Source: an uncultured Myxococcales bacterium
Lineage (GTDB): Bacteria; Myxococcota_A; UBA9042; DTJE01
Length of the DNA stretch: 64,000 nt
NCBI GenBank assembly: GCA_903936705.1
Contig: CAIZWN010000020.1
Span: 28,224 to 92,223, forward strand
Direction: 5' to 3'
In this document: piece after piece, positions 1 to 18,575 of the stretch
How the letters are laid out: each line of letters opens with the position of its first letter
How positions within the stretch are numbered: position 1 is the first letter of the stretch
Made by a program: the position numbers and the translations under genes
Notes under the pieces: generated by a model
Told to the model about the DNA's origin: nothing
The model's database searches: none
The model's input: the letters and a program-made list of their open reading frames with translations, nothing else

Positions 1-1714
1 GCAGGCGCTGGCCGGGGTAAAACTGCGTGGGCTTCTGGGACGCCTGACTCGCAACCGTGTCGGCGCCTGGGGTGCCGGGGGATTCCTGGGCCTGCTGGTC
101 CATTCAGGCCCCGGCATCGTGATGGTCGTGGGCTTCGTGGACGCGGGCTTGCTGACGCTGACGGCCGCCATGCCGCTGGTGCTGGGCATCAACCTGGGCA
201 CCACGCTTTCGATGCAGGTCTTTGCATTCTCGATCGGCCCTTTGTGCCACGTCGCGATCGCCGTGGGGCTGTTGCTGATGCTGGCTGGCCGCCGCGAATC
301 CATACGGAACATCGGTTCGATGCTTGTAGGTTTCGGCCTGCTGTTTCTGGGCATGGAGACCATGTCCAAGGCGATAGTCCCGCTGAAGGATGCCGGCGTC
401 TTCACGAGTTTCCTGGCCCAGGCAGACGGAACGACGTTCATTGGAACGCTGACCGGCCTCATGTTCGCCGCGGCAATCACCGCCATAATCCAGTCCAGCG
501 GCGCCACCATCGGAATGCTGTTCGCCCTTGCCAGCGCTGGCGTGTTCACGGACATCACGCAAGCATTCCCTCTGGTTCTGGGTGCCCACATTGGAACCTG
601 CGTGACCGGTCTGTTCGGCAGCCTAGGCACCCACATCGAAGCCCGCCGCACAGCCGTGGCACATCTTCTGTTCAACATCATCGGGGCGCTGCTTGCCGCG
701 GCGATGACGCCCGTCTACGTCGAGATGCTTCACTGGATCGGCGGGGACCTCGTGCGTCAGATCGCGAATGCCCACACGCTGGTCCAGTTGATCAGCGGCT
801 TGCTGATGCTGCCCCTGACGGGACCCTACGCGCGCCTGGTCCGCTGGGTCACGCCCAGCCGTTCGGGTCCCGCGCCCCGCAGCTTCCTGGACGAGAGGTA
901 CCTCGACACTCCCGAGATGGCAATAGTTGCGGTTATGCAGGAAACGCGACGCATGACCGCCCTTGCCCGCAAGATGTTCCGGCAGGCCATGGGCGCTCTG
1001 GTCGAACGGACTCCAGAGACTTCCGCGATAGTCTCGCGGGAAGAGGCGTCGGTGGACCTTCTGAAGGATGCGATCAACGACTACCTGCTGCTGGTGGGCC
1101 GTCGACGACTGTCGCGACGTCAGGCAATACTGTTGCAGTACCTTCAGCGCACCGTGGTTGATATCGAACGGATCGGCGACCATGCCGAGTCGCTGTTTGA
1201 AGTCCTGTCCGAGAAGGAGGATCGCCACATCTGGTTCGACGACGAAAGCATGCACCTCCTGGTCCAGCAATACCGTCGTGTCGATGAGATCCTGGCTCTG
1301 GTGGTGGACAGCCTGGACCCGGCGCGATCCGAATTCGGAGAATGCGCCCGGAAGGTGATTGAGGCACGCGAGGCCTACCAGACGCAAAGCCTGCGAACGC
1401 GCGACATGTACCAGGATCATGTCCTTTCAAGGCGGGCTGATGCAATCAGTGGGATCCTTTATTCCAACATCCTGAACATCATGGACCGCATAGTTCACCA
1501 TTCTCGCAACATTGCCCGTGTCGAGAACGAGCCTCTGTTTCGCCTGAAACTGTACAAGATCGAGCGCCGCTCAGGCCGTGAGCGCCGCCCCGCCCAACCG
1601 ATCGGCAAGGGTATTCGGGTGGATCCCAGCCTGTTCGCCACCGACGACATCGACCTGGAGATCCGCCTGGCCGGCCAGGTTCAGCTGAAGCCGCCCGAGA
1701 AACCCAGGTCCTGA
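1..1714 (+). CDS. Na/Pi cotransporter family protein with C-terminal PhoU domain (5'-truncated by window edge)
   Basis: The open frame runs in from the window edge (first full codon at base 2), so the N-terminus is missing; the GTG at 119 is internal. About 570 residues are visible. The membrane part has the inverted-repeat organisation of NptA/PNaS transporters: the second repeat keeps the QSSGAT motif (around 490-510) followed by LGAHIGTC, and the first repeat has LGINLGTT. The C-terminal third is a PhoU-like helical domain with the DIERIGDHAE signature near 1160-1190. Family knowledge: these inner-membrane proteins import phosphate with sodium, or in bacteria balance phosphate by efflux. 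Oddity: where the first repeat normally carries QSSSA, this protein reads VHSGPG. The downstream porin and PHP-domain gene may also serve phosphate use (inference). Confidence 0.9.
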   Translation, partial: QALAGVKLRGLLGRLTRNRVGAWGAGGFLGLLVHSGPGIVMVVGFVDAGLLTLTAAMPLVLGINLGTTLSMQVFAFSIGPLCHVAIAVGLLLMLAGRRESIRNIGSMLVGFGLLFLGMETMSKAIVPLKDAGVFTSFLAQADGTTFIGTLTGLMFAAAITAIIQSSGATIGMLFALASAGVFTDITQAFPLVLGAHIGTCVTGLFGSLGTHIEARRTAVAHLLFNIIGALLAAAMTPVYVEMLHWIGGDLVRQIANAHTLVQLISGLLMLPLTGPYARLVRWVTPSRSGPAPRSFLDERYLDTPEMAIVAVMQETRRMTALARKMFRQAMGALVERTPETSAIVSREEASVDLLKDAINDYLLLVGRRRLSRRQAILLQYLQRTVVDIERIGDHAESLFEVLSEKEDRHIWFDDESMHLLVQQYRRVDEILALVVDSLDPARSEFGECARKVIEAREAYQTQSLRTRDMYQDHVLSRRADAISGILYSNILNIMDRIVHHSRNIARVENEPLFRLKLYKIERRSGRERRPAQPIGKGIRVDPSLFATDDIDLEIRLAGQVQLKPPEKPRS

Positions 1715-1863
1715 AAACCGGCTTGGTTCGCAGGCTTGGAAGTCACCCCGAGCCACCGTCGGCCATCGATCGAATACATCTCCAATGCGCTAATGACGCG
1801 CTGCGTCTTCCGCGTTACAATTCCTGGCGACTGCCCGTGGCTCACCCTGGATCCGGAGGCTTC

Positions 1864-4227
1864 ATGGACGTTATCGAGATCCTCGCACGCATCGGCCGAC
1901 GTGTAATCGTTCGGCTGGACCAGTCTCGCCTGCCCTCCCTGGACGGCACACTTGACCTTCCCGGCCTGTCGGGCCCGGTCGAGGTTGTCAGGGACCGTTG
2001 GGGCGTACCGCACATATATTCGGAGAACCGTAACGACCTCTTCCTGGCGCAAGGCTATGTGCACGCGCAGGACCGCCTGGCCCAGATGGAACTGGGACGC
2101 CGCTTCGGCCTTGGTCGCCTGTCGGAACTGTTCGGTCCTGGCGCCCTTGTCGCAGACAGGGCATCGCGGGTACTTGGATTCGCGCGTCTGGCCAGCCTGG
2201 ACCGGCAACTCGTTTCGCCAGACATGCTGGACGGGATGCAGTCCTACTGTAAGGGTGTCAACGCCTTCTTGAATGACGCCGCCTTCAAGGCACCCGTTGA
2301 ACTCTTCCTGGCACGCTGGCACCCCGAACCTTGGACACCGCACGACTGCCTTGCCTGGGCTAGGGTCATGTACTGGCAATTGTGTCGAGGCTGGTCGAAC
2401 GAAGTCGTCAGGGCCATGCTGGTCGAGGCCGTGGGGCCCGAAGCCGCCGCTGAACTGGAGATCGGCCCGATCCCCGGGGAGATTCCGACCCTCCCCGACG
2501 GCATCGAGGTCCGCAAGGTTGACCCGTCCCGGCTGGTGCCAGGCTCCGGCCTAGCCGCCGCTCGCGGAATGGGCAGCAACGCATGGGCACTGTCGCCCGA
2601 ACGGACGACCACCGGCGGGGCAATCGTCGCGAACGACATGCACATGCCCCTGATGCAACCCTCCTTCTGGTACGAAAACCACCTAGTGGGAGGAGGCCTG
2701 GATGTCACTGGCGTATCCCTGCCGGGAATCCCCCTGGTGCTTGTGGGCCACAACGCCCGAATCGCCTGGGGAATGACCCTCGCCCACACGGATGCCGAGG
2801 ACACTTTCGTCGAGCGGTTCGACCCTGCGGACCCTCACCGCTACGAGATCCCAGGCGGCTGGGCCCAAGCCGACGTGCTGCGCGAGGAGATCCGCGTCCG
2901 TGGACGCCTGAAACCCCATGTAGAGGAGGTCGTGACAACCCGCCACGGCCCGATCATCTCGGACCTCTTCGGCGCCATCCACCAGCGACTGGCCCTGCAA
3001 TCCACAGCATTGACCCCATGTGAAGCGGCGCGAGGCTTCCTGTTGCTGAACACCGCGACCGGATGGGACGACTTCGTCGAGGCAATGCGCTGCATCACGA
3101 CGCCTCCGCTGAATATCGTGTACGGGGACGTGGACGGCAACATCGGCTACTGGAACGCCGGAACATTGCCCGTGCGTTCGTCCGGACTGGGCGATTTGCC
3201 TTCACCTGGCTGGACAGGCCAAGGAGACTGGGTCGGAACCATCCCGTTCGACGAGATGCCCCACGCCCTGAACCCTGCTCGCGGGTACGTCGTGTCGTGC
3301 AACCACAGCCTGGTACCTGAAGGCTACCCGCATTTCCTGGGGCGTACGTTCATCAGCGGGGCCCGCGCCCGCCGCGTGCACCAGTTCATCGAGGAACGCG
3401 GGCGCCTTGGGATCCAGGACTGCCGCCTGCTGCAAGCCGACGTAACCAGCCTGCCGGCCCAGGAGTTCGTGCGATGCCTGGACGGTCTGCCAGACGGCTC
3501 CGACCCGGACGTGCGCCTTGCACTGGAACTCCTGAGGGCATGGGACGGACGCCTGACCGAGGGATCTGCTGCAGCGGCTGTCTACGAGGCAACACGCCAC
3601 TGCACCATGCGACTCCTCATCGAGCCGGCCCTCGGCCAGGACCTGGCTTCGCGTGTGATGGGACTTGGCTTCGACCCGGCCGTAAACCTGACCAATGAGT
3701 TCTATGGATTCGACATCCACGTACTCTTGCGACTGCTGGGCGATCCGGACTCGTCCTGGATCCGGAAGGCTGGCGGAAGGGAAGCCGTGCTGCGGGCAGG
3801 CATGAAAGCGGCTGTAGGAAAGCTGCGCGACCGGCTGGGACATGACCCTTCGGCCTGGCGATGGGGCGATCTGCACGGGGCCACATTTACCCATATGCTG
3901 GGGGATCAGGCACCTTTGGATCGTCTGCTGAACATCGGACCGGTACCTGTGGGAGGCGATTCAGATACACCGAACCAGACAGCCATGATGCCCGACCGAC
4001 CTTATGGCACACGAGCGTGGGCGCCTACGTTCCGCCAGATCATCGATCTGGCCGATCTGTCGCGCTCGCTGGTTATTCACGCCCCGGGACAGTCGGGTCA
4101 TTTTGCCAGCCCCCATTTTTCCGACCTGCTTGAGACGTGGCGCCGCTGCGAACATCATCCCATGCTGTGGACGCGGCAGCAGGTGGACGCCGATTCGATC
4201 CATACACTGTGGCTGAAGCCGGTCTGA
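1864..4227 (+). CDS. penicillin acylase family protein (Ntn hydrolase)
   Basis: A 787-residue protein of the penicillin/acyl-homoserine-lactone acylase family (peptidase S45). These precursors self-cleave into alpha and beta chains, and the new N-terminal Ser of the beta chain attacks an amide. Visible marks: the alpha-chain start VVRDRWGVPHIYSEN, the FAQGYVHAQDR-type segment (here FLAQGYVHAQDR), and the cleavage site GMGSNAW with Ser238 as predicted nucleophile, followed by NDMHMPL and the beta-chain segment GHNARIAWGMT. The ATG at 1864 was chosen because a GGAGG lies just upstream; the frame is open to 1723 but that part does not look like protein. No signal peptide is visible, although most relatives are periplasmic, so location is uncertain. 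Substrate cannot be told from sequence: beta-lactam side chains, acyl-homoserine lactones or other N-acyl amides are all possible. Confidence 0.9.
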   Translation: MDVIEILARIGRRVIVRLDQSRLPSLDGTLDLPGLSGPVEVVRDRWGVPHIYSENRNDLFLAQGYVHAQDRLAQMELGRRFGLGRLSELFGPGALVADRASRVLGFARLASLDRQLVSPDMLDGMQSYCKGVNAFLNDAAFKAPVELFLARWHPEPWTPHDCLAWARVMYWQLCRGWSNEVVRAMLVEAVGPEAAAELEIGPIPGEIPTLPDGIEVRKVDPSRLVPGSGLAAARGMGSNAWALSPERTTTGGAIVANDMHMPLMQPSFWYENHLVGGGLDVTGVSLPGIPLVLVGHNARIAWGMTLAHTDAEDTFVERFDPADPHRYEIPGGWAQADVLREEIRVRGRLKPHVEEVVTTRHGPIISDLFGAIHQRLALQSTALTPCEAARGFLLLNTATGWDDFVEAMRCITTPPLNIVYGDVDGNIGYWNAGTLPVRSSGLGDLPSPGWTGQGDWVGTIPFDEMPHALNPARGYVVSCNHSLVPEGYPHFLGRTFISGARARRVHQFIEERGRLGIQDCRLLQADVTSLPAQEFVRCLDGLPDGSDPDVRLALELLRAWDGRLTEGSAAAAVYEATRHCTMRLLIEPALGQDLASRVMGLGFDPAVNLTNEFYGFDIHVLLRLLGDPDSSWIRKAGGREAVLRAGMKAAVGKLRDRLGHDPSAWRWGDLHGATFTHMLGDQAPLDRLLNIGPVPVGGDSDTPNQTAMMPDRPYGTRAWAPTFRQIIDLADLSRSLVIHAPGQSGHFASPHFSDLLETWRRCEHHPMLWTRQQVDADSIHTLWLKPV

Positions 4228-4241
4228 TCAGACGCGTGAAA

Positions 4242-5372
4242 TCAGTGCCGCGGCGGCGTCACGGCTGGCCTGGCAGGTGCCGGACTGGGCGCTATCCCCT
4301 TGGGCTTGCCCATCTTGGCAATCGACGCGGCAGGATCGCTGACAAGGTATGGAATGGCCATTCGAGGCTGATCCTTCCGGTCCGTCAACACGTAGACCAA
4401 CCCGCTGGATGTCTTGGGTGCCTTCCGCAGAACGATCCGGACAAGCCAGCCCTGTCCCTGCGGAGCCACCGTCCCGGCCAAAGCCCCGGCTGGGTCTTCG
4501 ACCTTCAACAGGCTGAACGGCTTCCCGGACGCGGACGAGACTCGCATCGTGATCTCGGGGAACGGCAGCCCCTTCTCGAATGGCGACAGAACAGCAGTCG
4601 GCGGCATGACGTCGAGGTCTCCACCAACCTTTGCCCGTACCTGCAGGGTCAATTCAGGGGCCTCCGGCACGCCGGTCGCAACAGTCACTCTGCCGCTGAC
4701 CTGGGCCGGAATGGGGCCTGCCGTCAAAGTCACCGCAATGGCATCAGATCCGCCGTCCTTGACCAGTTCGGCCTTCAGCAGCAAGGGATCCGACACTTTC
4801 AGGCCCGACAGATGCAGCGAACCTGGTTTCATCGCCTCGATACGCACCTTTTCGGTACGCACGGTCCCTTCGGGTATCCGACCAAAATCCAGGAAAGGCT
4901 TCTCGAATCCGACCAGCACGTCGATGCGCCCCTTCATCGTCAGGGTAAGCTTCGGACTGGTCGCGGAGTCCGTTGTGACATCGACGGTCTTGGTCAATGC
5001 CCCACGGCGGCCCTTCGTGTGAATCTTGACCTCGATCTGTCCTTCCCCACCCGGGGGAAGCTCGGCCGCCGAGACGACGGCCGCTGTGCAGCCTCAACCA
5101 CCCCTCGCATTCAGGATTCTCAGAACCCCGTCCCCGACATTCTTCACCACGAAGGTATGGGAAACCTCCTGGCCCTCCATCACGGCACCCCAGTCATGCT
5201 CGGGCGTGGAGCATGCGATCACCCCGTTTCCCTTTGCCGCCGCAGCGCCCACAACATCGACTGCGACCACAACCCCGGCGCCTGTATCCGAACCAACCAC
5301 GCCGCCCGTGCAAGCAGCAACGGCCAGCAAGGCCGCCGCCCAGATTCCCGACGTCCACCCATGAACCTTCAT
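4242..5372 (-). CDS. DUF1573 lipoprotein with in-frame TGA at a conserved Cys: candidate selenoprotein
   Basis: Read through one TGA (5096-5094), this is a single 376-residue frame; without readthrough it breaks into 4242-4997 and 5094-5372, which are in the same phase. The ATG at 5372 follows a GGAGG. Residues 1-20 are a lipoprotein signal ending LLAVAAC. The DUF1573 domain follows: DWGAVMEGQEVSHTF, VKNVGDGVLRIL, then GG-(TGA)-GCTAAV. In the family this position is the first Cys of a conserved CGCT motif, so the stop at codon 93 replaces a Cys exactly, and homology continues on both sides (ELPPGGEGQIEVKIHTKGRRG). A SECIS-like hairpin starts 10 bases after the TGA. The C-terminal two thirds look like further Ig-like beta domains. 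Reading as selenocysteine is inference; a recent nonsense mutation or base error is the alternative. It is the last of three leftward genes (6423 to 4242). Confidence 0.75.
5063..5083 (-). promoter_or_regulatory. SECIS-like hairpin just downstream of the in-frame TGA
   Basis: On the minus strand the bases after the TGA contain CGGCCG (5083-5078), a nine-base loop TCGTCTCGG (5077-5069) and CGGCCG again (5068-5063), giving a perfect 6-bp stem. GCT (5092-5090) can also pair with AGC (5062-5060) across a 5' bulge. The apical GUCU lies at positions 22-25 counted from the U of UGA. In the E. coli fdhF SECIS the GGUCU loop lies at 22-26, so both the offset and the essential GU are met. No folding energy was computed. 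Confidence 0.55.
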
Positions 5373-5521
5373 GTGAACCTCCACAACAGGGAACGAACCT
5401 CGTCCCTGATCGGTATCAGGCTGCAACGATAACGATGCAGGCTTTCAGGCGCAAGATCACCGGCAGCTTCCGTCCGTTCGCACACGCAAATCCTGAAGTT
5501 AACTGGCAGCTTCCACGCGGA

Positions 5522-18170: not shown

Positions 18171-18271
18171 AAGCATCGATCGTCCGTCCCTGTTGTCCGT
18201 CGCACGAGACGCGAGGCGATACGAGGGTCCGAACGCATCCGCTTCCTCCCGAAACAGCGTGCGCTAGCAGC

Positions 18272-18430
18272 TGACGCGCAGTGTCCTGACTCCCGGATCA
18301 CCCTCCCCCAGGCCTTCCCGGCGCACCCGCGCCCGTGGTCACCCTGGGTTCGTCCCCGGTTACAGTTGCGGGGGCAGCGCCGGTTTCGCACCGGCTTCCT
18401 GCGACGTCGAACCGTTCGTCTTCTACCCTT
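18272..18430 (-). ncRNA. cobalamin (B12) riboswitch
   Basis: Reading the minus strand, the conserved core blocks occur in the right order: GGAAGCCGGTGCGAAACCGG with the following GCGCTGCCCCCGCAACTGTA (about 18399-18360), then GGGAAGGCCTGGGGG, then GGGAGTCAGGACACTGCGC (about 18294-18276). These match the L5/P5-J6/3-P6 region, the CCGCAACTGT block and the GAGTCAGGA 3' block of the AdoCbl/cobalamin class. It lies about 135 bases upstream of the ATG at 18140 on the same strand, so it should control the three-gene operon 18140-15398. Exact ends are approximate. Confidence 0.9.
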
Positions 18431-18575
18431 TGCCACAAAAGCGGTCAACCTATCTTCTTGCGCATCGATACGGCCGTAATCCCGCCCCTCACCATTTATT
18501 CATCTCTAAAGTTTTATTCCAGGGGTGCCGAACTTAATGGAGATTAACGCCCCAAGCGGGAATTGGAGGACGATG

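What the first reader, a model, noticed from the sequence alone, without database searches (positions are those of the whole stretch)
4242..5372. Candidate selenoprotein: DUF1573 lipoprotein with UGA in place of the first Cys of CGCT
Seen: one in-frame TGA (5096-5094) joins two same-phase open frames; it falls precisely at the position where the DUF1573 family has the first Cys of CGCT (here GG-TGA-GCTAAV), and family-like sequence continues for hundreds of codons. Known: bacterial selenoproteins often have Sec in redox CxC-like motifs, and former deltaproteobacteria are rich in them. Inference: Sec is inserted to make a U-G-C redox motif in an exported lipoprotein. I do not recall DUF1573 as an established selenoprotein family.
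Basis: partly seen in the sequence, partly recalled or inferred. Interest (0 to 1): 0.93.

Follow-up and report, generated by a model that had tools for sequence, protein, structure and literature searches.

The report
Selenocysteine lipoprotein with double-hairpin signal
In this relative of the myxobacteria, an apparent early stop codon in a gene for a predicted lipoprotein is likely read as the rare amino acid selenocysteine, as already proposed for this protein family in other bacteria, and a predicted RNA hairpin of almost unchanging sequence, found here only in stop-codon versions of the gene, would help to direct it.

Summary
In detail: one in-frame TGA (5096-5094, minus strand) sits exactly where relatives have the first Cys of CGCT, in a 376-codon DUF1573 frame. 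The selenocysteine reading is strongly supported: the genome has selA, selB, selD and tRNA-Sec; relatives carry UGA at the same codon (42 UGA, no UAA or UAG in 75 loci); among 22 strong homologues in 377 Myxococcota genomes, 15 of 16 UGA genomes have selA and 0 of 6 Cys genomes do. What I did not find in print is the recoding signal. Besides a hairpin that fits the standard SECIS rules at 18 nt, the gene has a second one, UUCCCC-CGGGY-GGGGAA, whose loop lies 40 nt after the UGA, outside the published 16-37 nt range. Its 19-mer (with the following GG) is exact in 37 of 43 UGA forms and 0 of 50 Cys forms, and in 377 Myxococcota genomes it occurs 12 times, each time in this gene, 37 nt after the start of the UGA. 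Sec insertion, SelB binding and a redox role remain inferred.

The parts
4242..5372 (-). CDS of the predicted selenoprotein, 376 codons with Sec at codon 93
5378..5382 (-). GGAGG, likely ribosome-binding site, five bases before the ATG
   Evidence: sequence read; function inferred
5310..5372 (-). predicted signal peptide with lipobox (VAA-C21)
   Evidence: read by eye from the translation; C21 nearly invariant among the 10 sequences of A1; lipidation inferred
5094..5096 (-). in-frame TGA, predicted Sec codon (U of U-G-C)
5063..5083 (-). hairpin H1 (UGA+14 to +34); in this gene a standard bSECIS candidate: 8 bp by the rule scan (9 bp with a three-base loop when folded), loop GUCUC, 18 nt from UGA
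   Evidence: family-wide pairing
5043..5059 (-). hairpin H2 (UGA+38 to +54) UUCCCC-CGGGU-GGGGAA; near-invariant in UGA forms, loop 40 nt from UGA
4926..5213 (-). DUF1573 domain (residues 54-149), Ig-like fold, carries U93-G-C95
4335..4922 (-). two further beta-sandwich domains (about residues 151-250 and 251-346)
   Evidence: AlphaFold2 model, block pLDDT 95-98 for residues 151-340 and 87 for 341-350; domain limits set by eye from the strand order
4242..4244 (-). natural terminator TGA

Best explanation
The gene encodes a DUF1573 protein with one in-frame UGA at codon 93 that is likely decoded as selenocysteine by the genome's selA/selB/selC/selD machinery, giving a predicted lipoprotein with a Sec-Gly-Cys motif. 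Shown: the frame, the UGA at the Cys position, the machinery genes, UGA at the same codon in many relatives, the match with selA, and two conserved stretches after the UGA that fold into hairpins on paper. Inferred: while the ribosome sits at the UGA, SelB with Sec-tRNA binds the mRNA just downstream. I think the second hairpin (H2, UUCCCC-CGGGY-GGGGAA) is the part that it recognises in this family, because H2 is the common element of nearly all UGA forms examined and follows the published bSECIS rules except spacing; the variable first hairpin (H1) would fold up the stretch between UGA and H2. In this particular gene H1 alone already meets the published rules, so H1 could be the SelB site and H2 an accessory. 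Also inferred: the protein is exported, lipid-anchored, and uses the Sec-Gly-Cys pair as a reversible selenenylsulfide redox centre on an Ig-like domain; its partner is unknown. When a lineage loses selA, UGA is replaced by a Cys codon and H2 changes. The confidence given is for Sec decoding; H2 as the SelB site I hold at about even odds.
For: Machinery: selB 280.5 bits (cut-off 242.25), with SelB wing domains PF09106 and PF09107; selA 484.7 bits; selD 349.9 bits; tRNA-Sec 72 bits, gathering 47, anticodon TCA. Homologues: in the window's own GTDB family the UGA form is in 5 of 13 genomes and selA in exactly those 5. In 377 Myxococcota genomes, 22 homologues over 150 bits: 16 UGA, 6 Cys; selA in 15 of 16 against 0 of 6, Fisher 9e-5, kinship ignored. 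No UAA/UAG at the codon. On a tree without the motif columns the Myxococcota Cys rows lie inside a mostly Sec clade in four places. H2: exact 19-mer in 37 of 43 UGA forms and 0 of 50 Cys forms; with the same PPGGEG peptide 37 of 42 against 0 of 9, while background codon use would give codons CCC CCG GGY GGG GAA in 0.9% of rows. In 377 genomes: 12 hits, 12 of 12 in this gene 37 nt after the start of the UGA; reversed control 0. H2 99.3% of cells paired over 45 rows, one compensatory change. H1+H2: 44 two-sided changes, 43 of them in H1, against 20.4 +/- 2.8 in shuffles and at most 22 when slid.
Against: No expression, protein or selenium data. One UGA genome (G058) has no selA match, and G249 only a weak one (E 1.3e-13); both are draft genomes. 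Three UGA forms lack H2 (L139, L076, L101), so H2 is not indispensable. My rule scan allows only unbroken stems, so 'standard SECIS in 8 of 45' may be too low; in the window gene H1 meets the standard. The UGA forms were found through a PPGG[ET]G peptide pattern, so those H2 counts hold for forms with that peptide; rows are related, not independent. H2 is nearly invariant, so its pairing rests on little covariation. H1 is only 77.8% paired, two of the five covariation measures are reached by 30-40 of 500 shuffles, the register that fits the window best does worse over the family than one slid by 3, and RNAalifold does not predict H1. The window region folds no better than many shuffles (z -1.4). 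No second selenoprotein was found in this genome to compare SECIS elements (three families tried). The redox role has no direct evidence, and neighbours are not conserved.
Confidence: 0.92

Rival explanations
1. Sec is inserted, but through the standard hairpin H1 at 16-37 nt alone; H2 is an accessory element (pausing or stimulating hairpin, or mRNA stability) and not the SelB site.
For: In the window gene H1 meets all four published bSECIS rules: 8 bp, loop GUCUC, spacing 18, -14.6 kcal/mol. H1 covaries across 45 UGA forms. Three UGA forms lack H2.
Against: A rule-abiding unbroken hairpin at 16-37 nt was found in only 8 of 45 UGA forms, against 43 of 45 for one at 38-42 nt; Cys forms 1 and 2 of 50. 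H1 is not in one register over the family.
Confidence: 0.35
2. The UGA is an ordinary stop or low-level readthrough codon, giving a short lipoprotein and leaving the downstream frame as a remnant or a separate protein.
For: No protein data; ORFs called under table 11 stop there.
Against: UGA and never UAA/UAG at that codon in 42 forms; the downstream frame is conserved over its three domains; UGA occurs with selA and Cys without it.
Confidence: 0.03
3. The TGA is a sequencing or assembly error for TGC or TGT.
For: The genome is a draft in 84 contigs, and the two same-genus relatives have TGC.
Against: The same UGA with the same H2 hairpin is in four other genomes of the family and in many loci of other phyla; the window has H2 and selA, while both TGC relatives in the genus lack selA and an exact H2.
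Confidence: 0.01

Closest known systems
Sec-containing DUF1573 family (OS_HP2; PF07610; NCBIfam NF041425; Zhang & Gladyshev 2007)
   Same: DUF1573 domain, Sec-Gly-Cys motif, Cys homologues elsewhere
   Different: This protein scores 95.7 bits on NF041425, under its cut-off of 100 (orthologue L025 scores 112.7); two further beta domains follow DUF1573; the host is a Myxococcota genome. The 2007 paper is not held and was not read, so its own SECIS drawing, if any, could not be compared.
Bacterial SECIS consensus model (as given in PMC13188914, Fig. 2 legend, passage seen)
   Same: H1 of this gene fits all four rules; H2 fits stem, loop size, loop G and energy
   Different: H2's loop is 40 nt from the UGA (rule: 16-37 for most elements), and H2 is near-invariant in sequence over several phyla within this one family
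HYDIN/VesB/SPD-2-type Ig-like domains; P. gingivalis protein 2qsv
   Different: Sequence matches are distant, the multi-domain rmsd values are large, and a shared fold shows no function

Membership tests
DUF1573 (Pfam PF07610) | score over the curated cut-off (26.1 bits) | tested here: met
   81.1 bits, E 6.3e-23
Sec-containing DUF1573 (UGC) as listed in PMC9312934 and PMC13188914 | in-frame UGA at the first Cys of CGC, frame continues as DUF1573 | tested here: met
NCBIfam NF041425 OS_HP2 subfamily | score over the curated cut-off (100 bits) | tested here: not met
   95.7 bits; of four orthologues L025 (112.7) and L024 (100.1) pass, L023 (93.5) and L021 (91.9) do not. So I call it a Sec-DUF1573 protein and do not claim the NCBIfam label.
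Sec-decoding bacterium | selA, selB, selC, selD present | tested here: met
   each over the family's cut-off
Bacterial SECIS model, hairpin H1 | 3-9 nt loop, 4-16 bp stem, G in first two loop bases, 16-37 nt from UGA, energy at most -7.5 | tested here: met
   8 bp, GUCUC, 18 nt, -14.6 kcal/mol in the window; 8 of 45 UGA forms by the same unbroken-stem scan
Bacterial SECIS model, hairpin H2 | spacing 16-37 nt | tested here: not met
   40 nt; the other rules are met. In one relative (L089) the 19-mer starts three bases nearer the UGA, which would make it 37.
Selenoprotein | selenium in the protein | not testable with these tools
   needs 75Se or mass spectrometry
Lipoprotein | lipobox Cys after a signal peptide, lipid attached | tested here: inconclusive
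   lipobox VAAC read by eye; C21 nearly invariant among 10 sequences; no lipidation data

The most novel reading that the evidence does not exclude
H2 is a distinct class of bacterial SECIS: a fixed-distance hairpin of almost invariant sequence, 40 nt after the UGA, that SelB reads in one selenoprotein family across at least five phyla, with H1 as a flexible fold that brings it near the ribosome. Programs built on the 16-37 nt rule would miss it.
Probability: 0.4. Interest if true: 0.7.

Novelty: new variant of a known kind. Interest (0 to 1): 0.5.

Why it matters
The recoding signal matters more. A 19-base sequence whose 12 occurrences in 377 Myxococcota genomes all lie behind the UGA of this gene, and that no Cys form examined keeps exactly, is an unusually clean case of a recoding signal under selection inside a coding frame. 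It lies just outside the spacing that the SECIS model allows, so it bears on how many selenoproteins are missed and on how SelB tolerates distance. The family also shows Sec-to-Cys replacement in several lineages, one of them in the window's own genus; the 6 Cys genomes examined all lack a selA match.

Tried and rejected
Second selenoprotein in the genome, to compare SECIS elements: formate dehydrogenase (TIGR01553) gave four weak partial hits without stops, Rdx/SelW none, AhpC-TSA nine hits without stops. These are 3 families only, so others may exist.

Gene neighbourhood as a guide to function: in 39 loci with flanks of at most about 4 kb, the window's neighbours are shared with the two same-genus relatives and partly with L038, L054 and L058, not beyond. 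Dropped.

Plasmids: one record (Parabacteroides distasonis, 27.9% identity, DUF1573) matched; not pursued.

G343's inside TGA proved to be its natural terminator, and the inside TAG of G001 and G113 also follow the protein's end; they are not counted. G305's second TGA was not looked at on its own; the next stop after its Sec codon is 269 codons on. A first motif scan was off by one residue and was redone (there the lazy pattern reports the residue one or two before the Cys for most Cys forms, but it would report a stop at the codon). A first translation of the loci forgot the minus strand and was redone.

RNAalifold on 45 UGA forms predicts H2 but not H1; it gives a small stem at 4-5/17-18 and 8-9/13-14 instead. 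Single-sequence folding of the window region is not exceptional (z -1.4, 23 of 200 shuffles as stable), so the case for H1 and H2 rests on conservation and not on stability. Two of the three regions folded (L023, L026) did not start at the UGA, so only the window row counts.

Papers: search listings and passages only; no paper was read whole. Passages seen in PMC9312934, PMC13188914, PMC2398784 and PMC1088965. The listings for DUF1573, OS_HP2, bacterial SECIS, Myxococcota selenoproteins and a second SECIS hairpin showed no title or abstract on such a hairpin, and the term 'second hairpin' is not in PMC13188914; most subscription papers are not held.

Rows dropped before counts: of 120 domain rows, 93 were kept (43 UGA, 50 Cys); the rest were second copies of the same genes or did not fit the motif pattern. 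A3 has 39 of the 43 UGA rows (L076, L089 and L101 left out for a codon deletion, L073 as identical to L067 over this stretch) plus 6 of the 7 genomes new (L121 left out as the same stretch as L046). One search kept the best 80 of 128 relatives. One search scored at most five candidates a genome, and the 377 genomes are a sample of the phylum.

Full report
What is in the sequence. On the minus strand an ATG at 5372, with GGAGG five bases upstream, opens a frame of 376 codons to a TGA at 4244-4242, interrupted only by TGA at 5096-5094, codon 93. The frame begins with a signal-peptide-like stretch ending in VAAC, and PF07610 covers residues 54-149, across the TGA, at 81.1 bits.

The genome can decode Sec. 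The window lies in G000:C20. G000 has selB (280.5 bits; Pfam finds the GTPase, beta-barrel and wing_2 and wing_3 domains), selA (484.7 bits), selD (349.9 bits) and one tRNA-Sec over the gathering score, anticodon TCA. The selB, selD and tRNA-Sec profiles also ring in all 14 control genomes, mostly under the cut-off, so the over-cut-off scores are what counts. Named relatives place the genome in the Myxococcota: the nearest named loci are 'uncultured Myxococcales bacterium' records (inference from relatives).

Relatives. In the 13 genomes of the window's own family (G000-G012), five have TGA at exactly this codon (G000, G006, G007, G009, G012), five have Cys (G001, G002, G004, G008, G010), two (G005, G011) have a short lipoprotein-like frame with only the last domain, and G003 has no match. 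selA is present in exactly the five UGA genomes and in none of the other eight. In a sample of 377 Myxococcota genomes, 22 homologues score over 150 bits: 16 UGA and 6 Cys. G343 scored lower and its TGA is a terminator. selA is in 15 of the 16 UGA genomes (G058 none; G249 a weak match, E 1.3e-13) and in none of the 6 Cys genomes; 250 of 377 genomes have a selA match overall (Fisher 9e-5 without regard to kinship). Among GTDB species genomes, the best 80 of 128 relatives were kept; their titles name Myxococcota or Deltaproteobacteria, Zixiibacteriota, Thermodesulfobacteriota, CSSED10-310, Acidobacteria, Gemmatimonadetes, Bacteroidetes and others. A motif scan of them found UGA 42 times and UAA or UAG never. 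A quick tree of 50 sequences without the motif columns puts the Myxococcota Cys forms inside a mostly Sec clade in four places, some forks open, so Cys is likely derived there. Sec forms are over-sampled by the search pattern, which weakens the polarity argument.

The recoding signal. Around the UGA, synonymous codons of the five UGA genomes of the family agree far more than elsewhere (87% before, 79% after, 50.5% in the rest), while the five Cys relatives show no peak (32%, 53%, 52%). Two hairpins account for the stretch after the UGA. With H1 drawn at +17-22/+29-34 and H2 at +38-43/+49-54, 44 cells change on both sides (43 in H1), against 20.4 +/- 2.8 in shuffles and at most 22 when slid. 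H1 is 77.8% paired over the family; the register that folds best in the window (+14-22/+26-34) fits the family less well than one slid by 3 on the covariation measures. H2, UUCCCC-CGGGY-GGGGAA, is nearly invariant: 99.3% of cells paired in 45 UGA forms, one compensatory change, three pairs that never vary. The 19-mer with the following GG is exact in 37 of 43 UGA forms and 0 of 50 Cys forms. The peptide alone does not explain it: among rows with the same PPGGEG peptide it is 37 of 42 against 0 of 9, and background codon use would give the codons CCC CCG GGY GGG GAA in 0.9% of rows. In L089 a codon is missing between UGA and H2 and the 19-mer is intact; in the second copy of L065 the peptide reads PPGEVG, yet the loop and a four-pair stem remain, with the one compensatory pair. 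Among the 16 Myxococcota UGA forms, 12 have the exact 19-mer, three more keep the six-pair stem with a changed loop or a changed GG (L143, L145, L147), and one (L139) has lost it. Searched as a bare pattern in 377 genomes, the 19-mer gives 12 hits, one per genome, all 12 in this gene 37 nt after the start of the in-frame UGA, and its reversed control gives none. In the window it is the only match with up to two mismatches of the 17-mer.

Against the published SECIS rules (PMC13188914, Fig. 2 legend, passage seen), an unbroken-stem scan finds a fitting hairpin at 16-37 nt in 8 of 45 UGA forms, the window included, and a hairpin that fits all but spacing at 38-42 nt in 43 of 45; in 50 Cys forms the numbers are 1 and 2. 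So H2 is the common feature of the family. I infer that SelB reads H2, at about even odds against the reading that H1 is the SECIS and H2 an accessory. The same review says that a subset of bacterial SECIS elements fails the model, so exceptions are recognised in general; the searches made here showed no report of this one.

Novelty. DUF1573 with UGC is listed as a selenoprotein family in PMC9312934 and PMC13188914, both citing the 2007 Olavius symbiont paper (not held, not read), and OS_HP2 (pfam07610, UxC) is in the 2008 ocean survey (PMC2398784) (passages seen). NCBIfam has NF041425, on which this protein scores 95.7 of the 100 required, while two of four orthologues pass. So the protein is a new member of a known kind; the second hairpin makes the recoding signal a variant.

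Noticed in passing
18258-18455 (-): Cobalamin riboswitch, 83 bits (gathering 31.5).
   Followed up: no
119-1714 (+): ORF that looks like a Na+/phosphate cotransporter with a PhoU-like tail (named by eye, no search); a similar ORF lies near the Cys-form gene in L054 and L058.
   Followed up: no
1723-4227 (+): ORF that looks like a penicillin-acylase-type hydrolase (named by eye, no search), convergent with the selenoprotein gene; similar ORFs in L035, L036 and L038.
   Followed up: no
L063:4103-5389 and L065:4133-5444: Two tandem UGA copies of the gene in each of two CSSED10-310 genomes; the second L065 copy keeps the H2 loop and four pairs although its peptide changed.
   Followed up: partly
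L043:3887-8173: Three homologous stretches in a row: one UGA form followed by two without an in-frame UGA.
   Followed up: no
L030, L031 (genomes G005, G011): Short lipoprotein-like frames with only the third domain, in genomes without a selA match.
   Followed up: partly
L140 (genome G058): UGA form with intact H2 in a draft genome with no selA match (94% complete, 6% contamination): assembly gap, contamination or recent loss.
   Followed up: no
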